NCBI RefSeq assembly: GCF_004959855.1
Contig: NZ_SPNT01000007.1
Location: 62,001-126,000 of the forward strand
Source of the DNA: Nitratireductor sp. XY-223
Lineage (GTDB): Bacteria > Pseudomonadota > Alphaproteobacteria > Rhizobiales > Rhizobiaceae
Reading direction: 5' to 3'
Length of the DNA: 64,000 nucleotides
Shown here piece after piece: positions 49,102-58,122 of the stretch. A program made the position numbers and the translations under genes. The first letter of the stretch is position 1. Each line of letters starts with the position of its first letter. Below the pieces are notes generated by a model that ran no database searches, was not told where the DNA came from, and saw nothing but the letters and a program-made list of their open reading frames with translations.

Positions 49102-50388
49102 TTAAGGACGTTCTGCCTCGATCACCGATGAAAGCGGATCGGACGAGGCATCGATGCGCGCCAGATAGGCCTGGTCAATCTCCGGCAACGGCTCGTTCCT
49201 GATCGCGGCCTCGAATGCCTTCAGCCTTTTGTAGATCGACATCAGCTCGACGATCGTCGTCCACGAGTTCACCAGGTACTGGAACGAATTGGAGACCTGG
49301 GCAAAGGCCGTCAGGATCTGCTGAATGAGGCCGAGGGTGATCTTGCCGGCGGTAATCGTCGGAATGAGTATGAAATAGGCAAAGATGTTGTCCGCCTGCA
49401 GGAAAAAGCCCCGGGCAATATTGAAGTACATATAGTGGAAATAGAGGCGAAAATAGTTCTTGCGGACATTGTTGAAGAGTTCGGCGACGGTCGGCGGCTG
49501 CGCCCTTTTCTCATCGTCCTCGCCATAGACCAGCTCCTTGCGGTAGGCCGCCTCGACCCGCTGGTTCTTGAACTCCAGACCGGGCAGCTTGATCCCGACA
49601 ACGGATAAAAGCACTGTGCCGAAGAGCGACCAGAATATCGCGGCCGTGAACAGAGGCGACGGGATTTCGCCGATGATCGGCAATTCGCTGACATAGCCCG
49701 ACAGGCTCCACAGGACCGGCAGGAACGCAAACAGCGTCATGACGGAATCGACCATGCTGACGCCGAGCCCTTCCATGATGCCGGCGAAGCGCATGGTGTC
49801 TTCCTGGACACGCTGCGAGGCGCCCTCGATATGCCGGACCTCTTTCCAGCGCGACATGTAGTAATTGTTCATGGCGGTGCGCCAGCGGAAGATGTAGTGG
49901 CTGACGAGAAACCGGGTGGCGACAAAGACGGCCATGGCCATGAAGGCGATGTAACCGAAGATCATGATGAGACCGTAAAGGTCGGCGGCGGTCACCGTCC
50001 CCTCGCCCTCCAGTGCCGATTGAACGGAATCGAAGAACGGTCTGCGCCAGTTGTTGAGCGCCACGGAAACCTGGACGGAAAAATAGGTGGAAAACAGTAT
50101 CAGTGCCGAGCCGAGCACCGACCAGATGAACCATGGATGCGGCGAAAAGCGATACCAGAAGACCGCGAAGATCGCGACGACAACGGCGTAATAGACGTAG
50201 AACCACAAAAAGCTCTGGGTCCAGAAATAGCGGATGCCGACAACTTCCGCGTCGTCCGGTGCGAATTCAAACCCCAGCGCGGTACCGATCCCGGTCCCGT
50301 ACATGTACCAGATGAAAGCCGACAATAAGGCCCAGGCGACCGCGGACAGGAAAAACACCTTGGGCTGAGGAAAGAAGGATTTGAACAC
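49102..50388 (-). CDS. bacA: BacA/SbmA-type peptide antibiotic transporter
   Basis: The 428-residue membrane protein begins [19 protein letters not shown] and shows the SbmA/BacA core: [60 protein letters not shown] and [16 protein letters not shown]. Members import proline-rich and other peptides by proton motive force. In rhizobia BacA also matters for lipid A very-long-chain fatty acids and for legume symbiosis. Length is normal. A pair of overlapping GTCA/TGAC dyads lies upstream at 50422-50442. Confidence 0.92.
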
Positions 50389-51850: not shown

Positions 51851-52195
51851 ATGAACGTGCAGCACATATTCTCCGCCCTGTCGGATCCAACGCGTTTCGC
51901 GATCGTCGAACAGCTCCTTGAAAAGGGCGACCAGACGGCGGGCTCGCTTGCCGAACCTTTCAACATCTCCAAGCCGGCCATCTCAAGGCATTTGAAGGTG
52001 CTGGAGGAAGCCGGCGTGATCGAGCGCAAGATCGACCGGCAGTTCCGATCCTTTAGCGTGCGCCCGCAGAGCCTGCGCAGCCTGGATGACTGGATCGGGC
52101 GTTACCGCCGCTTCTGGCAGACATCGTTCGACCGGCTGGAAAAAGTCCTGCAGGACAACAAGGAAAAGGAAAACAAAGATGACGACCGTGATTGA
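51851..52195 (+). CDS. ArsR-family winged-helix repressor
   Basis: The 114-residue protein is a compact winged helix: MNVQHIFSALSDPTRFAIVE, SLAEPFNISKPAISRHLKVL and EEAGVIERKIDRQFRSFSV. It lacks the ELCVCDL metal motif of metal-sensing ArsR proteins, so it probably senses something else or is non-inducible, as in many ArsR-SRPBCC pairs. GAGG precedes the ATG. It overlaps the SRPBCC gene by 17 bases in another frame. Autorepression through the operator at 51809-51825 is likely. Confidence 0.9.
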   Translation: MNVQHIFSALSDPTRFAIVEQLLEKGDQTAGSLAEPFNISKPAISRHLKVLEEAGVIERKIDRQFRSFSVRPQSLRSLDDWIGRYRRFWQTSFDRLEKVLQDNKEKENKDDDRD

Positions 52196-52625
52196 CGATC
52201 AGGTGCTCTACATCGAGCGCACCATCGCAGCCCCGCCCGACAAGGTCTTCGATGCATGGATCAACCCGGACATGCTGATTCAGTGGTGGGGCCCGGAAGG
52301 CATGAGCATTCCCAAGCACAACCTTGATGTGCGCGAGGGCGGCAGCTGGGAGACGACCATGCGCAACGCGGAAGGCGGCGAAGTCATTGTCTCCGGGATC
52401 TACAAGGCGATCGACCGACCCAACCGGCTGGTCTTCACCTGGGCCTGGCACCAGCCCGACGGCTCGCGCGGAGAGGAAACCGAAATCACGGTCACATTCG
52501 AAGCCGTTGACCGCGGCACCAAGATGAAGCTCGACCAACGCGCGTTCGCCGAAGTCAGCAATCGCGACAATCACCGCATGGGCTGGGATTCGAGCTTCAA
52601 CTGCCTCGACAAACTGTTTGAATAG
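52179..52625 (+). CDS. SRPBCC/AHSA1 domain protein
   Basis: The 148-residue protein has the START/Bet v1-like fold of the AHSA1 group: IERTIAAPPDKVFDAWINPD, IQWWGPEGM and the C-terminal RMGWDSSFNCLDKLFE. Members bind hydrophobic ligands in a deep pocket; the ligand is unknown. AGGAAAAGG lies upstream of the ATG. The gene overlaps the ArsR gene and is followed at 11 bases by the DUF899 gene, so the three are one operon. Confidence 0.88.
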   Translation: MTTVIDDQVLYIERTIAAPPDKVFDAWINPDMLIQWWGPEGMSIPKHNLDVREGGSWETTMRNAEGGEVIVSGIYKAIDRPNRLVFTWAWHQPDGSRGEETEITVTFEAVDRGTKMKLDQRAFAEVSNRDNHRMGWDSSFNCLDKLFE

Positions 52626-52636
52626 GGAGAAGAGCC

Positions 52637-53347
52637 ATGCAGGATCATGCCGTTGTTTCTCGCGAAGAGTGGCTGAAAGCGCGGGTTGCGCTGCTTGAGC
52701 GCGAAAAAGCCTTTAACCGCGAACGCGACGCGCTCAGCCATGAGCGCCAGGCGCTGCCATGGGTCGAGGTGACCAAGGACTACACATTCGACACCGCCGC
52801 CGGCAAGAAGTCGCTGGGCGACCTCTTCGGCGAAAACAGCCAGCTTGTCGTCTACCACTTCATGTACGGACCGGACTGGGAGGCAGGCTGCAAGAGCTGC
52901 TCGTTCCTGGCCGACAGCTTCGACCGCAATGTCGTGCACCTGGCGGCACGGGACGTTACGCTCGTCGCCGTTTCGCGGGCGCCGCTCGAAACGCTAGACG
53001 CCTTCAAGAAACGCATGGGCTGGAGCTTCGACTGGATCTCATCGCTCGGCAGCGACTTCAACTACGACTTCGAAGTCTCGTTCACAGAAGAAGCGCGGGA
53101 AAAGGGGACCATCCGCTACAATTACCGGGCCAGCGAATTCCCGGCGGATGAAGCTCCGGGGGTCAGCGTCTTCTACAAGGACGCCGACGGAAAGATCTTC
53201 CACACCTATTCGACCTATGCGCGCGGTCTCGACATGCTGATCGCCTGTTACCATTTCCTCGATCTCGTTCCCAAGGGACGCGACGAGAACCAGCTGCCCT
53301 ACCCGATGGACTGGATCCGCCTTCGGGACGAATACGGCAAGGCGTAA
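52637..53347 (+). CDS. DUF899 family thioredoxin-like protein
   Basis: The 236-residue protein has the DUF899 pattern: SREEWLKARVALLEREKAFN, LPWVEVTKDYTFDT, VVYHFMYGPDWEAGCKSCSF and FYKDADGKIFHTYSTYARG. The C-x2-C in GCKSCSFLAD is in the thioredoxin position, so redox activity is possible. GGGAGA precedes the ATG. It is the last gene of the ArsR-SRPBCC-DUF899 operon and ends at a strong terminator. The biological role of the family is not known. Confidence 0.88.
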   Translation: MQDHAVVSREEWLKARVALLEREKAFNRERDALSHERQALPWVEVTKDYTFDTAAGKKSLGDLFGENSQLVVYHFMYGPDWEAGCKSCSFLADSFDRNVVHLAARDVTLVAVSRAPLETLDAFKKRMGWSFDWISSLGSDFNYDFEVSFTEEAREKGTIRYNYRASEFPADEAPGVSVFYKDADGKIFHTYSTYARGLDMLIACYHFLDLVPKGRDENQLPYPMDWIRLRDEYGKA

Positions 53348-53401: not shown

Positions 53402-54673
53402 TCATATGACCGGTGATTGGCGTGGCAGGCGGACCCTGATTGCGGCGTTCTCTTCCTCGCGCGGCACGATCTCGACGGAGCCGCCGTGCGCCCTTGCGAT
53501 CTGGTCGACCAGCGGCAGGCCGAGGCCGTAACCCTCGACATTCTGCCGGTCAGCGCCACGGTAGAAGGGCCGGAACACCTTCTCCCGGTCCTTCTCGGCA
53601 ATGCCCTCCCCCCAGTCGCGAACCGTCAGCGTCACGGTGTCGTCATCGGCCTCCAGTTCGACGAACACCGGCGGAACACCGTGCTTGTGTGCGTTTTCCA
53701 GCAGGTTCGCCAGCAGGCGGTGAAGAAGGCGCGGATCGCCGCTGATCTCCGGCGCCCGCCCGGACAGCCGGCAATCGTCGTAGCGGGCGCATTCCTCGGC
53801 CGCCAGGGCGACGAGATCGACGGGCTGGTTCATGTTGACGTTCGCGCCCGCGTCCAGCCGGCTCATCAGGAGGATCTCGTCGATGAGATTGTCGAGTTCG
53901 GCGATGTCCCGCTGCAGGTCTTTCTTTCGCTTCGGGTCCTGCTCGCCTTTCGACATCTCCAGGCCGAGGCGGATGCGCGACAGCGGCGTGCGCAGTTCGT
54001 GCGAGGCGTTGGCGAGCAGCAGCCGATGCGCACCGACCAGTTTCTCGATCTTCTCGGCCGCCTCGTTGAAGCTCTCGGCGAGCTTGGCCACCTCGTCGCG
54101 CCCGCGTACCTCGACGCGAGCGCTCAGTTCGCCGGCCCCTATGCGCTCGACACCGCGTTGCAGAAGTTCCAGCCGCTTGGTGAGGCGGCGCACCAGCGGA
54201 AATGCAGCGAGACCGACGCACACGGCGACAATCAAGAGCATCAGGAGCAGATCGCGCAACGGCTTGAACCCGTCCCCGCCGGGCGGGTCGGCGACAACGG
54301 AGCGGCCGTCCGGCAGGCGCAGCGAAAAGGCCGGCCCTTCCGATGTCCGCCGCCAACCGCTGCGCCGGTTGTGCCGGGAGCGCAGGATTTTCGGCTCGCC
54401 GTAAGCCGCGATCAGCTCCCCTTCGGCATCGAACAGGCTGATATCGAGTTCGAGTTCGCGGCCAAGCGAATTGACCGCGGCCTGCTGTTCGCTGTCCGGG
54501 GCGTCCGCGGGCGGCAATGTGAGAGCCACAAACCGGCCCGCCACTTCCGTGATCCGCCGATCCTCGCCGTCGCGTCCGAACGCGTTCCACAGGATGCCGG
54601 ACAAGATGGCCACGAGAACAAGGCTGGCGATCAGGGTCAGGTAGATCTGGAGGTAAAGGCGCCGTCTCAGCAT
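53402..54673 (-). CDS. Sensor histidine kinase (CpxA-like)
   Basis: The 423-residue kinase has membrane helices at about 10-30 and 142-160 with a periplasmic sensor of about 110 residues between them. HAMP (RRLTKRLELLQRGVERIGAG) follows. The HisKA phosphoacceptor is His225 (ANASHELRTPLSRIRLGLEM) and the ATPase lobe has NLLENAHKHG, DWGEGIAEKD and GYGLGLPLV. It is the last gene of a minus-strand set that begins with two Spy/CpxP genes. Its layout and context resemble CpxA, a sensor of envelope stress. Confidence 0.92.
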   Translation of the reverse strand: MLRRRLYLQIYLTLIASLVLVAILSGILWNAFGRDGEDRRITEVAGRFVALTLPPADAPDSEQQAAVNSLGRELELDISLFDAEGELIAAYGEPKILRSRHNRRSGWRRTSEGPAFSLRLPDGRSVVADPPGGDGFKPLRDLLLMLLIVAVCVGLAAFPLVRRLTKRLELLQRGVERIGAGELSARVEVRGRDEVAKLAESFNEAAEKIEKLVGAHRLLLANASHELRTPLSRIRLGLEMSKGEQDPKRKKDLQRDIAELDNLIDEILLMSRLDAGANVNMNQPVDLVALAAEECARYDDCRLSGRAPEISGDPRLLHRLLANLLENAHKHGVPPVFVELEADDDTVTLTVRDWGEGIAEKDREKVFRPFYRGADRQNVEGYGLGLPLVDQIARAHGGSVEIVPREEENAAIRVRLPRQSPVI

Positions 54674-54707
54674 CGGACCAGGCCTTGAAGGTGGTCAGTG
54701 CTTCGCA

Positions 54708-55394
54708 TCAGTCCTGCGACCGGGCGAAGACGTAGCCCGCCCCCCTGACGGTAATCAGCCGGCGCGGCCGGTTGGGATCTTCCTCGATCTCGGCGCGGAT
54801 GCGCGAAACGTGCACATCGATCGACCGGTCGAACGCCGCCAGGTCCTCACCTTTCAGCGCGTTCATGATGTAGTCGCGGCTGAGCACCCGGCCGGCGCTC
54901 CCGGCCATGATGTGCAGCAGTTTGAACTGGTGCGGGGTCAGCGCGCAGACCCGCCCTCCGATGCGCGCCTCCATGGCCTGCGGATCGATCTCGAGGCTGC
55001 CGAAGCGCAAGATGTCCGACCGCTCTTCGCTGCGACCGCGGCGCAAGATTGCGCGCAGGCGGGCCAGCAGCTCGCGCGGCTCAAAAGGTTTGGGAAGATA
55101 GTCGTCCGCGCCGAGCTCCAGTCCGACAATGCGGTCCATTGGCTCTCCCTTTGCCGTCAGCATCAGGATCGGAACCCCGTCGCCCGCGCGAATAGTGCGG
55201 CAGACCTCGAGCCCGTCGGTATCGGGCAGCATCAGATCGAGCAGCACCGCGTCGAAGCCGCGCTGGCGTTGCAGCGCAAGCCCTTCGGCCCCGGTGGCAG
55301 CGATCGTGACCGCAAAATCGGACTCGCCGAGATAGTCCCTGACCATCTCGGCGAGCCGCGCATCGTCTTCAATGAGAAGAATCTGTTGTGTCAT
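54708..55394 (-). CDS. OmpR-family response regulator (CpxR-like)
   Basis: The 228-residue regulator has a receiver domain with acidic residues IEDDARL, the phosphorylated Asp53 (AVLLDLMLPDTDG) and Lys (LTAKGE). A winged-helix DNA-binding domain follows (FGSLEIDPQAMEARIGGRVC, RAEIEEDPNRPRRLITVRG). It is encoded 34 bases before its kinase. It probably binds the GTAAA-N5-GTAAA boxes found twice upstream of the Spy/CpxP genes of this locus, which fit the E. coli CpxR consensus exactly. Confidence 0.94.
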   Translation of the reverse strand: MTQQILLIEDDARLAEMVRDYLGESDFAVTIAATGAEGLALQRQRGFDAVLLDLMLPDTDGLEVCRTIRAGDGVPILMLTAKGEPMDRIVGLELGADDYLPKPFEPRELLARLRAILRRGRSEERSDILRFGSLEIDPQAMEARIGGRVCALTPHQFKLLHIMAGSAGRVLSRDYIMNALKGEDLAAFDRSIDVHVSRIRAEIEEDPNRPRRLITVRGAGYVFARSQD

Positions 55395-55421
55395 TCAATG
55401 TGTCTGCTGCGGAAGTCGATT

Positions 55422-56024
55422 TCAGTGACGCCACCTGCCGCGCATCGACCGGAACTGCTCCAACCGCTCCTTGATCGTATCGCGCTGTTCCGCGGTCAGT
55501 ACCATGGACACATCGGTGACAACATCGACCCATTCTTTGCTGATCTGGTCGGCCTCCGCAAGTTTTTCGGCACGCAGTTCCTCGATCGCAGCGCGATCGA
55601 CGACCGGCGAGGTCAGCAGTTCAGCGAATTCCTGCCCGGTTCCGCGCATCTCGCCACGCAGCGTTTTCATGTTGATGACCGCCGGCAGGACCAGGGCGAC
55701 GATCTGCTCCTGCTGCTCCTCGGTGGCATCGATCTCGATTGCCAGGTGTTTGACCGCCCTGGTGATCTGCCGTTCGATTTCGGCATTCGACATGTTGGCG
55801 AAATCCGGTCCGCGGCGGCGGTGCCCGCCCCAGGCCGCATTGCGCAGTTCGGCACCGCCATCCGCGGTCAGCATGCGGACATGCTGGTAGGTCTTGCTGT
55901 CGGCCACGGCCTGGACGGTGAATATGCCGCCGGCGGTGATGCCGGCACCGGCGATCAGCGCGATGGCCAACCGGTTGCCTTTCCTGAACAGGCCGGATTT
56001 CGGGTTGTGCTGCTCGTTCGACAT
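55422..56024 (-). CDS. Spy/CpxP family periplasmic protein
   Basis: The 200-residue protein has a membrane anchor or signal (LAIALIAGAGITAGGIFTVQ) and a helical Spy/CpxP-like domain. RAVKHLAIEIDATEEQQEQI and VLTAEQRDTIKERLEQFRSM are two LTxxQ-type repeats, here TEEQQ and LTAEQR. CpxP in E. coli is a chaperone-like inhibitor of CpxA, and this protein lies 27 bases before the regulator gene. The start at 56024 follows AGGAG; the first 24 residues are hydrophilic. A CpxR-type box is 93 bases upstream. Confidence 0.87.
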   Translation of the reverse strand: MSNEQHNPKSGLFRKGNRLAIALIAGAGITAGGIFTVQAVADSKTYQHVRMLTADGGAELRNAAWGGHRRRGPDFANMSNAEIERQITRAVKHLAIEIDATEEQQEQIVALVLPAVINMKTLRGEMRGTGQEFAELLTSPVVDRAAIEELRAEKLAEADQISKEWVDVVTDVSMVLTAEQRDTIKERLEQFRSMRGRWRH

Positions 56025-56116
56025 GGTTTGCTCCTTTACTGTCGACGCCTCGGGGACATGGCCCCGGGCCTCCATTCCAACGTGGTGTTCGGACGTTTCC
56101 GCGGCTTTTCGGCCAG

Positions 56117-56131
56117 GTAAAGAAATGTAAA
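56117..56131. promoter_or_regulatory. CpxR-type box upstream of the first Spy/CpxP gene
   Basis: GTAAAGAAATGTAAA fits GTAAA-N5-GTAAA exactly. It lies 93 bases before the start of the 55422-56024 gene, within a 38-bp block that matches the block at 56675-56712 at 29 positions without gaps. Confidence 0.75.
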
Positions 56132-56137
56132 TTCCGC

Positions 56138-56157
56138 GACCGGAACCGGTTCCGGTC
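56138..56157. repeat. Perfect 20-bp palindrome between the two Spy/CpxP genes
   Basis: GACCGGAACCGGTTCCGGTC is its own reverse complement and covers the stop codon of the upstream gene. In RNA it would fold with a small loop. It can act as an attenuator or mRNA end, or as an operator. It has no T tract. Confidence 0.6.
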
Positions 56158-56596
56158 AGTTCGTGCGGCGCAGTCGCGCGCGCATCGCTTCACGCTGTTC
56201 CTTTTGCAGCCTGTGGAATTCGTCCATCTGCTGCGGCGAAAGCACGGTCGCCAGCTGCTGCTCGAACGCGCTTCGGTTCTTCTGCACGTCGCCGCGCATC
56301 GCCATCATCTTGCGCCTGGAGGGGCGCTCCCCCGGCTCCAGATCGACGTCGTGCTTTTCGAGCATCGCCTTGGTGGCCAGACCGTAGTCCTGCATGATCG
56401 GTATCAGGGCCTGGCGCTGATCTTCGGTCAGTTGCAACTTTTCGGCCATTTCCTGCACCCTTTCCTGTAATTGCTGTTCATCGCCAATGGACATGCCCTG
56501 CGCCGGCGCGGCGGTCGCGTAGAGGACGAGCAGGAACAGGTAAAATCCGCCGAGGAAGATCAGTTTGACGGCATTGAATGGCAGTTTGCGGCTCAT
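56156..56596 (-). CDS. Second Spy/CpxP-like periplasmic protein
   Basis: The 146-residue protein has a signal or anchor (LIFLGGFYLFLLVLYATAAP) and a helical domain with two LTxxQ-like motifs: LQLTEDQRQALIPIMQD and VLSPQQMDEFHRLQKEQRE. This pattern is that of Spy/CpxP and related heavy-metal sensor proteins. It is the first gene of the locus and starts at the ATG at 56596 after AAGGAA. A CpxR-type box lies 102 bases upstream. A 20-bp palindrome covers its stop codon. Confidence 0.85.
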   Translation of the reverse strand: MSRKLPFNAVKLIFLGGFYLFLLVLYATAAPAQGMSIGDEQQLQERVQEMAEKLQLTEDQRQALIPIMQDYGLATKAMLEKHDVDLEPGERPSRRKMMAMRGDVQKNRSAFEQQLATVLSPQQMDEFHRLQKEQREAMRARLRRTN

Positions 56597-56697
56597 GGTT
56601 CGCTTTCCTTGTGGAGGCCGGCGCTCTGCCGGCGGCACATTTCGAAATGCACACATGCCGTCCTACCCGGCCGCCGTTTCGGGTGTTTTTCGTCAAT

Positions 56698-56712
56698 GTA
56701 AAGTTATGTAAA
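56698..56712. promoter_or_regulatory. CpxR-type box upstream of the second Spy/CpxP gene
   Basis: GTAAAGTTATGTAAA fits GTAAA-N5-GTAAA exactly. It lies 102 bases before the start of the 56156-56596 gene, in the 38-bp block shared with the other Spy/CpxP gene. Confidence 0.75.
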
Positions 56713-56744: not shown

Positions 56745-57425
56745 TCAATCCGCGACGGCCGTGTATTGCGGCGAACCGTTCCAGACAAGCTTCCAACGGG
56801 CGCCCGGCCGCACGTTCTGGACGAGATGCGGCTGGAAGGCGACAAGGCAGGTTCCGCCGGCGCGTCGGGCAGATGGGTAGATAATGCCGCGACTGCCGTA
56901 TTCCCTCAATGCGGCGGCAAGGGCCTGGCCTTCCGGATAGGCGTTTTCCGGGTCCTTCCCGAGACAGGCGGGCGATCCTGTCATTGCCCGCAGATCATGA
57001 AAATCGCCGACGAAGGCGGCCAGCAGGCACTGATAGACCGTTTCCTCTTCAAAAACACCGATGGCGGCCAGTTCCCGTGTCTTGTGAAAGGCCACCTCGT
57101 CGATGGCCGTCAGGTCTTCGAAGGCGCAATACCACGCGCCGCGGCTCTCGTCGTTGAAGCGGTTGCCGCCGGCCCGCGTATAGGCAAACGCGGCGTTGAT
57201 ATAGGACTGGCCCCAGACGTTAAAGGCCAGTTCCCGCGGGTCGAGCCCCGGAAGACCGGTGCTCTGCGCCCGAAGGCGCCGGTTTGTCAGACCCTCGATC
57301 TCCGCGAGGATCGCCAGCTCCTCGTCGTCGTCGACGAGCGGGGCCAGCACCGGAGGCTTGTAGTAGGCGGTGGGAACCAGGCGGACCGTGGCTTGCTGGC
57401 AGATGGTGGCCTCGGGTGGCGTCAC
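56745..57425 (-). CDS. RES-domain toxin (NAD+ phosphorylase type)
   Basis: The 226-residue protein has the RES pattern: GGNRFNDESRGAWYCAFEDL (the Arg and Glu region), FHKTRELAAIGVFEEETVYQ and SRGIIYPSARRAGGTCLVAF (the Ser region). RES toxins such as MbcT and ParT break down NAD+ or ADP-ribosylate a target and stop growth. It overlaps the antitoxin gene by four bases. The N-terminal 60 residues extend past the usual RES domain length of about 150. Toxicity is known from the family, not from this gene. Confidence 0.88.
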   Translation of the reverse strand: MTPPEATICQQATVRLVPTAYYKPPVLAPLVDDDEELAILAEIEGLTNRRLRAQSTGLPGLDPRELAFNVWGQSYINAAFAYTRAGGNRFNDESRGAWYCAFEDLTAIDEVAFHKTRELAAIGVFEEETVYQCLLAAFVGDFHDLRAMTGSPACLGKDPENAYPEGQALAAALREYGSRGIIYPSARRAGGTCLVAFQPHLVQNVRPGARWKLVWNGSPQYTAVAD

Positions 57426-57847
57426 GCCCCGCCCCGCAGCGCATCGACATAATTGCGGGTTTCCATGATCGCGGGCAGACCGCCCTCGATCATCGCCTCG
57501 ACCGGCTCGCGGCCGGAGAATATCGGGCCGCTGTTGCGCAGGCCGACCCAGCGGTCAGCCAAGGCATCGCTGAAATAGAGGTGCAGTGCCTTGTAAAGGC
57601 CGGTGATGGCGCTGACCCGCAGCAACTGATCGCGGTTAAGCCGGCCCGTCCACTGGCCGCTCTTCATGCGCGCCCAGGTGCGCGGGCTGACCGCGATCAG
57701 ATCGGCGGCAAGCCTGTTGTTGAGCTTCCAGGCCGCGACGATGCGCGCATAGGCCTTGGCGGCGACCGCTGCGACGCGGTCGTCGTCCATGGTTGCGAGA
57801 CCTGCGCCCGGTCCGGCGAACTCCTTTTGAAGCGGCTGCGGTGCCAT
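57422..57847 (-). CDS. Xre/MbcA/ParS-type antitoxin (DUF2384)
   Basis: The 141-residue protein has an Xre-like helix set (about residues 35-70: RLAADLIAVSPRTWARMKSG) and a DUF2384 toxin-binding domain ending GLPAIMETRNYVDALRGGA. I start at the ATG at 57847 because AAGGAA lies eight bases upstream and the promoter at 57873-57901 puts the transcript start near 57866; the ATG at 57865 would then be leaderless. It is the first gene of the toxin-antitoxin pair. Autorepression is likely through TGCCTTTTGGCA in the promoter spacer. Confidence 0.87.
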   Translation of the reverse strand: MAPQPLQKEFAGPGAGLATMDDDRVAAVAAKAYARIVAAWKLNNRLAADLIAVSPRTWARMKSGQWTGRLNRDQLLRVSAITGLYKALHLYFSDALADRWVGLRNSGPIFSGREPVEAMIEGGLPAIMETRNYVDALRGGA

Positions 57848-57872
57848 ATTTGCTTTCCTTGCCATGTGGCTT

Positions 57873-57901
57873 AATATAATATGCCTTTTGGCACAAATCA
57901 A
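57873..57901 (-). promoter_or_regulatory. Promoter and operator of the toxin-antitoxin pair
   Basis: On the minus strand TTGATT (57896-57901) and TATATT (57873-57878) are 17 bases apart. A perfect inverted repeat, TGCC-TTTT-GGCA (57882-57893), lies in the spacer. This is the usual place for antitoxin autorepression. Confidence 0.65.
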
Positions 57902-58122
57902 TATTGATGGCGCTGATTCGCTTGGCGACAAACCAGACATACACGCTGGATCAAAACGGCATGTCAGCAATATGACGGCCAACGGCGCCGGCACGACGGG
58001 ATTGCGTGTCCGAACTGTGGGCTCCTGGATTTAATTTAATTCTTCCAGATAGTTATCCGAAAGACTGGACTGATCGATTCAACGGATCACGCTGTGCGTC
58101 AAACCGTAAGACGGACCAACCG

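What the first reader, a model, noticed from the sequence alone, without database searches (positions are those of the whole stretch)
53402..56712. Cpx-like envelope stress locus with two matching CpxR boxes
Two Spy/CpxP-like genes, an OmpR-type regulator and a CpxA-like kinase are consecutive on the minus strand. Perfect GTAAA-N5-GTAAA boxes stand upstream of both Spy/CpxP genes at similar distances (102 and 93 bases). They sit in 38-bp blocks (56675-56712 and 56094-56131) that match at 29 positions without gaps. The same box consensus is known from E. coli CpxR. This suggests an autoregulated Cpx pathway with duplicated promoters in a rhizobial genome, where Cpx is little described.
Basis: partly seen in the sequence, partly recalled or inferred. 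Interest (0 to 1): 0.75.

Follow-up and report, generated by a model that had tools for sequence, protein, structure and literature searches.

The report
Cpx-like envelope stress locus, Hoeflea relative
This is a self-controlled stress switch that probably senses trouble in the bacterial cell envelope; it resembles the well-known Cpx system of E. coli and uses the same DNA control site, but its regulator belongs to a separate branch of the family.

Summary
Two exact GTAAA-N5-GTAAA boxes precede the two Spy/CpxP-like genes; the 38-bp blocks match at 29 positions. The 6.19-Mb genome has four exact boxes, all 80-125 bases before envelope genes: these two, an RND efflux operon and an L,D-transpeptidase. 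In 12 of 12 genomes with the regulator (own included) a box lies 0.67-1.30 kb upstream of it, always on the opposite strand. Two same-genus genomes without regulator and cpxP also lack the efflux-pump box. Conservation thus strongly supports an autoregulated Cpx-like system; no experiment was done here.

It is not new in kind: Santos et al. 2010 (PMC2912261, passages) reported this gene set with this box in Sinorhizobium meliloti, induced in a tolC mutant. What seems new: the regulators form their own clade (12 rows, 100/98) beside true CpxR (31 rows, 100/100), with both in 2 of 30 genomes; and the box is part of a longer promoter whose downstream positions match extra half-sites at CpxR-clade promoters. 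It works like Cpx; its regulator is not a CpxR-clade member.

The parts
53402..54673 (-). CpxA-like sensor histidine kinase (HAMP, HisKA, HATPase_c); periplasmic segment about residues 31-140 predicted PAS-like
   Evidence: Pfam; AlphaFold2 (pLDDT 81.9), Foldseek (best 3cwf PAS domain, E 2.2e-3, TM 0.59; none at 0.001 or better)
54708..55394 (-). OmpR-type response regulator of a clade separate from CpxR
   Evidence: Pfam; trees; best CpxR-model match of 16 in its genome but under cut-off
55422..56021 (-). CpxP-like LTXXQ periplasmic protein, the one conserved with the regulator
   Evidence: LTXXQ 27.5 bits over cut-off 24.3; 12 of 12 aligned homologues match LTXXQ; in 12 of 14 genomes searched, absent in the two regulator-less ones
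56094..56131 (-). extended operator of the cpxP-regulator-kinase genes: box 56117-56131, GAnAAnC 56104-56110, GAAAC 56095-56099
56079..56084 (-). candidate -10 element (CACGTT), placed by the conserved A at column 48
   Evidence: alignment; inference, weak hexamer
56156..56596 (-). second Spy/CpxP-like protein with signal peptide, lineage-restricted
   Evidence: LTXXQ 19.8 bits, sub-threshold; 3 of 5 members match LTXXQ; profile match to the other CpxP-like family, probability 88.7; four predicted helices after the signal, Foldseek inconclusive
56675..56712 (-). extended operator of the second Spy/CpxP-like gene: box 56698-56712, GAnAAnC 56685-56691, GAAAC 56676-56680
56660..56665 (-). candidate -10 element (TAGGAC)
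   Evidence: alignment; inference, weak hexamer

Best explanation
A Cpx-like envelope stress system. The kinase senses envelope disturbance through a PAS-like periplasmic domain and phosphorylates the OmpR-type regulator. The regulator binds GTAAA-N5-GTAAA, read as TTTAC-N5-TTTAC towards the cpxP genes, together with a weaker second pair of half-sites just downstream, and activates promoters whose -10 starts about 47 bases from the start of the box. In this genome it activates both Spy/CpxP-like genes with its own operon, an L,D-transpeptidase gene and an RND efflux operon: folding helpers, wall cross-linking and efflux. The CpxP-like proteins would bind misfolded envelope protein and damp the kinase. 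Shown by sequence: genes, boxes, their conservation, strand, spacing and joint absence with the regulator. Inferred: binding, activation, the signal, and feedback by the CpxP-like proteins.
For: Box 0.67-1.30 kb upstream of the regulator in 12 of 12 regulator-bearing genomes, 17 of 17 such boxes on the opposite strand. In 80 named loci, 57 with N5 and 17 more with N6 boxes upstream, all on that strand, none elsewhere in 661,411 bases; spacers 3, 4, 7, 8 and the reversed motif gave none. All 4 exact boxes of the own genome precede envelope genes by 80-125 bases. RND box in 4 of 6 regulator-bearing same-genus genomes and 0 of 2 regulator-less ones. Transpeptidase box, spacing and orientation identical in G007. 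Extended promoter: A at column 48 in 30 of 31, GAAAC in 23 of 31. E. coli cpxP has its box in the same orientation to cpxP, with TAAACT at nearly the same offset. Prior work: S. meliloti induction (PMC2912261, passages); CpxR acting on RND operons in Pseudomonas (PMC5063474, passages); the L,D-transpeptidase gene ldtD Cpx-induced in E. coli (PMC4791840, passages).
Against: No binding or expression data for this organism. G003 and G004 carry the regulator but no RND box. G007 has two further exact boxes whose context I did not examine. The total number of exact boxes is below the reversed control. The -10 hexamers of the two window promoters are weak. Some 60 of the 80 loci are Variovorax and near relatives, and four named loci are the same contigs as G007, G003, G001 and G051, so counts are not independent.
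Confidence: 0.84

Rival explanations
1. It is simply an orthologous Cpx system: the regulator is CpxR and the difference in trees reflects fast evolution.
For: Same box, linked LTXXQ protein; an AU test on 65 regulators does not reject the two clades as one group, p 0.80, that tree being 11.3 log units better than the quick free tree. It is the best CpxR-model match of its genome.
Against: Two separate well-supported clades, and 2 of 30 genomes hold one member of each. Window clade plus the OmpR set is not rejected either, p 0.76. CpxR and CpxA equivalog cut-offs missed by far. The recognition helix is not closer to CpxR (8 of 13) than BaeR and two paralogues (9 of 13) are.
Confidence: 0.15
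2. A metal-responsive system of the Zra, Czc or Cus type whose Spy-like proteins bind metal.
For: The CpxP-like protein also nearly matches Metal_resist (28.3 bits, cut-off 29.2), and 12 of 12 family members match it.
Against: Heavy-metal regulator and kinase models are far under cut-off (173.4 against 279.2; 113 against 292.55). The operator is of the Cpx type and the other boxed genes are an RND operon and an L,D-transpeptidase. Spy and CpxP themselves belong near that metal family (recalled).
Confidence: 0.1
3. The boxes are bound by another regulator, or match by chance.
For: 16 regulators of the genome match the CpxR model at E 1e-20.
Against: The box travels with this regulator across classes, and the RND box is absent with it in G002 and G005.
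Confidence: 0.04

Closest known systems
Sinorhizobium meliloti SMb21562-SMb21561-SMb21560 (Santos et al. 2010, PMC2912261, passages)
   Same: CpxP-like gene, regulator and kinase; GTAAA-N5-GTAAA box upstream; the pSymB regulator that I compared (CP130047, 62% identical) lies in the window's clade
   Different: One CpxP-like gene and one box in the pSymB stretch held; no RND or transpeptidase link in the passages read. I matched by plasmid, gene order and box, not by locus tag.
E. coli CpxPRA and Pseudomonas CpxPRS (PMC12802237 section 5 and passages; PMC5063474, PMC9600279, PMC4791840 passages)
   Same: Box, LTXXQ protein, box orientation and offset to cpxP, RND efflux (Pseudomonas) and an L,D-transpeptidase (E. 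coli) among targets
   Different: cpxP is divergent from cpxRA in E. coli; regulator in another clade, 39% identical; downstream positions read half-site-like CTTTAC or TTTGC at many loci and never GAAAC in 23 boxes
OmpR/EnvZ and RstAB
   Same: OmpR and RstB are the best NCBIfam scores of regulator and kinase; nearby in the tree
   Different: No cut-off met; no LTXXQ partner or GTAAA box defines them (recalled)

Membership tests
Cpx (CpxR-CpxA-CpxP) | Regulator in the CpxR clade or over the CpxR equivalog cut-off | tested here: not met
   173.6 bits against 341; own clade 100/98 apart from CpxR 100/100; sister relation not excluded
Cpx (CpxR-CpxA-CpxP) | Kinase over the CpxA equivalog cut-off | tested here: not met
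   128.7 against 486 bits; RstB and EnvZ score higher, also under cut-off
Cpx (CpxR-CpxA-CpxP) | PAS-like periplasmic sensor in the kinase | tested here: inconclusive
   Model pLDDT 81.9; best fold match a PAS sensor at E 2.2e-3, none at 0.001 or better; that CpxA has such a domain is recalled
Cpx (CpxR-CpxA-CpxP) | Linked periplasmic LTXXQ protein | tested here: met
   55422-56021 over LTXXQ cut-off
Cpx (CpxR-CpxA-CpxP) | GTAAA-N5/6-GTAAA operator before cpxP and the regulator | tested here: met
Cpx (CpxR-CpxA-CpxP) | Operator before other envelope genes | tested here: met
   RND operon and L,D-transpeptidase
Cpx (CpxR-CpxA-CpxP) | Regulator binds the box; response to envelope stress; CpxP damps the kinase | not testable with these tools
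   needs footprinting and reporter assays
LTXXQ / Spy family, second protein 56156-56596 | Over the Pfam LTXXQ cut-off | tested here: not met
   19.8 against 24.3 bits; homologues better, best E 8.8e-8 among 3 of 5 that match
Heavy-metal two-component systems (TIGR01386, TIGR01387) | Over the subfamily cut-offs | tested here: not met
   113 against 292.55 and 173.4 against 279.2 bits

The most novel reading that the evidence does not exclude
A second, ancient Cpx-like lineage, distinct from CpxR and spread over Alpha-, Beta- and Gammaproteobacteria, shares CpxR's operator and its tandem half-site cpxP promoter. Where it meets true CpxR in one genome (G107, G081) its distal half-site has changed by one base, while the proximal half-site and most of the downstream pair (GAAAT, GAAAC) are kept, which could insulate two paralogous stress systems that read nearly the same DNA word. 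Caution: changed distal half-sites also occur at loci such as Dyella and L047, where I did not test for a CpxR-clade gene.
Probability: 0.35. Interest if true: 0.62.

Novelty: new variant of a known kind. Interest (0 to 1): 0.5.

Why it matters
It gives the little-studied Cpx-like systems of Alphaproteobacteria a precise operator, a predicted promoter geometry and a small predicted regulon (two CpxP-like proteins, an RND pump, an L,D-transpeptidase), all directly testable. It suggests that genes called cpxR in rhizobia such as S. meliloti belong to a different regulator clade from enterobacterial CpxR although they read the same box, and two genomes that hold both offer a natural test of how paralogous two-component systems stay apart. 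The S. meliloti tolC data together with the RND box suggest a loop in which efflux failure induces efflux.

Tried and rejected
ChvI as reader of the GAnAAnC-GAAAC element: the ChvI motifs quoted in PMC9731502 (passages) do not match. ECF-sigma -35 reading of GAAAC: no conserved -10 at the spacing I recall for it. Wider regulon by one-mismatch boxes of the GTAAAG form in three genomes: 28, 25 and 44 places, below the reversed control of 76, 81 and 88; not analysed as a whole. I looked at 16 stretches (14 new sites): of the other exact boxes of GTAAAA or GTAAAC form in same-genus genomes, 7 of 7 lie inside open frames (L214, L216-L221); of three one-mismatch words shared by G000 and G007, two precede open frames (see noticed) and one lies in overlapping frames. 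Foldseek on the second Spy-like protein: best E 2.5, uninformative. PDB sequence searches with both Spy-like proteins singly gave nothing useful; the CpxP family profile reached a VirG-like protein at E 0.0088 and Spy at 0.026. The palindrome 56138-56157 is unique in the genome; the short spacing in L045 leaves no room for it there.

In one search the window was read from a wrong record, so its block comparison is void and was redone; the locus counts stand. In one search my ORF finder missed 28 of 30 regulators, so the tree holds only two of them; redone. The G001 line was cut on the wrong strand and is not used.
Full report
What is there. On the minus strand lie, in order of transcription, a small secreted LTXXQ-like protein (56156-56596), a second LTXXQ protein (55422-56021), an OmpR-type response regulator (54708-55394) and a sensor kinase (53402-54673). 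Exact GTAAA-N5-GTAAA boxes stand at 56698-56712 and 56117-56131, 101 and 95 bases before the two start codons; shuffles of the window give 0.01. The 38-bp blocks match at 29 of 38, and at 16 of 23 outside the box.

The four boxes of the genome. The genome has four exact boxes, against 11 for the pattern read backwards. Two are here. A third, GTAAAGTAATGTAAA, lies between hslO and an operon of a HlyD-type membrane fusion protein and an AcrB-type RND permease, 125 bases before the fusion protein. The fourth, GTAAAACCCAGTAAA, lies 80 bases before an L,D-transpeptidase gene (YkuD, 83.8 bits, cut-off 23.4), in the same orientation as at the cpxP genes; G007 has the same word at the same distance before its 92% identical copy. 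So 4 of 4 precede envelope genes by 80-125 bases. Seven other exact boxes that I looked at in G006, G001, G004, G002 and G005, of GTAAAA or GTAAAC form, all lie inside open frames; most other boxes listed were not examined.

Linkage of box and regulator. Of 61 genomes (own plus 60 relatives) 12 have the regulator at E 1e-60 or better. I searched boxes in 14: those 12 plus two same-genus genomes without it. In 12 of 12 a box lies 0.67-1.30 kb upstream of the regulator, 17 boxes in all, each on the strand opposite to it, out of 77 exact boxes in the 12 genomes. In the 80 best of 327 matching loci of named genomes (Hoeflea, Roseibium, Rhodoplanes, Bauldia, Dyella, Variovorax, Xenophilus, Inhella and metagenome bins), 57 carry 59 N5 boxes and 17 others carry N6 boxes within 1.4 kb upstream, all on the opposite strand; none of either kind lies elsewhere in 661,411 bases; spacers of 3, 4, 7 and 8 and the reversed motif give none. 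Six loci lack both (L047, L050, L061, L108, L109, L119): two have a one-mismatch box, three keep the proximal half-site with GAAAC or TTTAC downstream, and one is cut short. Sixty of the 80 (L065-L124) are Variovorax and near relatives, and four named loci are the same contigs as G genomes, so the counts are not independent.

A natural experiment. All 8 same-genus genomes have the RND fusion protein. An exact box precedes it in G000, G007, G006 and G001, in G001 further away and in the other orientation; none with up to 2 mismatches lies in the 306 bases before it in G002 and G005, the two that lack the regulator and the CpxP-like gene (12 of 14 genomes searched have it). Against the pattern, G003 and G004 have the regulator but no such box.

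A longer promoter. Read towards the genes and aligned on the box, 31 distinct promoters of the Alpha and soil-bin members show TTTACAT..CTTTAC, six free positions, GAnAAnC at columns 21-27, GAAAC at 32-36 and A at 48: GAAAC in 23 of 31, GAnAA in 21 of 31, A48 in 30 of 31. The extended pattern occurs in the own genome only at these two promoters, at up to one mismatch; since the pattern was built from them, only the uniqueness is informative. Variovorax-type loci have TTCAAGC at 21-27 and cTTGc at about 31-35, Dyella has TTTAC at 32-36. The transpeptidase promoters do not have GAAAC, but read TTCAT (G000) and TTCAC (G007) at 32-36 and TAGGGT and TAAAGT at 47-52 (my reading). At CpxR-clade loci, 22 of 30 have an N5 or N6 box upstream of cpxR, all on the strand of cpxR, as in E. 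coli where cpxP is divergent; read towards cpxP, many of the 23 boxes aligned have TTTAC or TTTGC near columns 30-36, and GAAAC in 0 of 23. I infer that the downstream element is a second, weaker pair of regulator half-sites next to a -10 at columns 47-52. In G107 and G081 that -10 reads TAATAT and TAACAT; E. coli cpxP has TAAACT about one base off (my reading, not a mapped start). In the two window promoters the hexamers are weak.

Whose family. By NCBIfam the regulator misses the cut-offs of all 25 families shown (of 102 matched); OmpR and MtrA score best, CpxR ninth. Among 16 CpxR-model matches of its own genome it is the best, narrowly (173.6 against 171.6; cut-off 341). A CpxR-model search of 249 genomes of the phylum (89 matched at 1e-55, 5 over cut-off) supplied the 30 best loci. 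I built a tree of 67 regulators: the window's, 8 of the 80 named loci, S. meliloti, two, these 30, 14 of E. coli and 11 paralogues of the own genome. The CpxR clade (31 rows, 100/100) and the window's clade (12 rows, 100/98) are separate; their relation with OmpR and RstA is open. An AU test on the 65 rows before rejects neither window plus CpxR (p 0.80) nor window plus the OmpR set (p 0.76). Of the 30 genomes with the best CpxR matches, 2 (G107, G081) also hold a member of the window's clade, next to its own LTXXQ gene and a box with one changed base in the distal half-site. Two genomes of the window's own family (G252, G255) hold a CpxR-clade regulator, without a box upstream in the stretch held, and no window-clade one. 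The recognition helix shares 8 of 13 places with CpxR, but BaeR and two paralogues of the same genome share 9, so the helix does not argue for CpxR.

Other parts. The conserved CpxP-like protein passes LTXXQ and 12 of 12 homologues match. The second protein does not pass; its small family, seen here in the window, Hoeflea poritis, a Roseibium and two uncultured bins, is related to the first by profile (probability 88.7), and its predicted four helices gave no decisive fold match. The kinase's periplasmic segment is predicted PAS-like.

What is known. Santos et al. 2010 (PMC2912261; passages) reported in S. meliloti a CpxP-, CpxR- and CpxA-like operon, 69-, 27- and 14-fold up in a tolC mutant, with GTAAAN5GTAAA before it. 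A search for its three locus tags found only that paper. PMC12802237 (section 5 read; passages) says Cpx homologues occur throughout Alpha-, Beta- and Gammaproteobacteria. PMC5063474 (passages) shows CpxR activating RND promoters in Pseudomonas through such boxes and cites activity in either orientation. PMC4791840 (passages) calls the L,D-transpeptidase gene ldtD Cpx-induced in E. coli. I saw no paper on the separate clade or the downstream element in the listings, of which 124 was mostly off the subject; that is no proof of absence.

Verdict. The locus works like Cpx, and may be its sister, but its regulator fails the clade and cut-off tests for CpxR.

Noticed in passing
49102-50388: SbmA/BacA-family peptide transporter (PF05992), 3 kb from the Cpx-like locus; no exact box nearby. 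PMC9600279 (passages) lists sbmA-ampH among E. coli genes it found CpxR-regulated.
   Followed up: no
56745-57994: RES-domain gene and Xre-like antitoxin gene, a likely toxin-antitoxin pair directly upstream of the first Spy/CpxP-like gene.
   Followed up: no
56138-56157: Perfect 20-bp palindrome GACCGGAACCGGTTCCGGTC at the end of the first Spy/CpxP-like gene, unique in the genome at up to 2 mismatches; it may be a hairpin between the two transcription units.
   Followed up: partly
51851-53347: ArsR-type regulator, AHSA1-domain gene and DUF899 gene in a row.
   Followed up: no
L222 1550-1564 and L223 1520-1534: One-mismatch box GTAAAGTAAATTAAA, 66 bases (start to start) before a 274-codon open frame in both G000 and G007; L224 and L225 hold GAAAAGCCAAGTAAA 41 bases before a 482-codon open frame in both. 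Possible weaker sites.
   Followed up: no
L138 2509-2523: GTAAAGAAATGTAAA box of G019 near LysR- and methyltransferase-like genes; the word equals that of a cpxP promoter but the context looks unrelated.
   Followed up: no
L208, about 2 kb downstream of the CpxR-clade gene start: In G255, a relative of the window's own family with a CpxR-clade regulator, two overlapping boxes (N5 and N6) lie about 2 kb downstream on the opposite strand, not upstream of cpxR.
   Followed up: no
L066 and other Variovorax loci: The box lies only 66 bases before the regulator itself, and the CpxP-like query found no homologue in these loci; the regulators seem autoregulated without a CpxP-like gene in front.
   Followed up: partly
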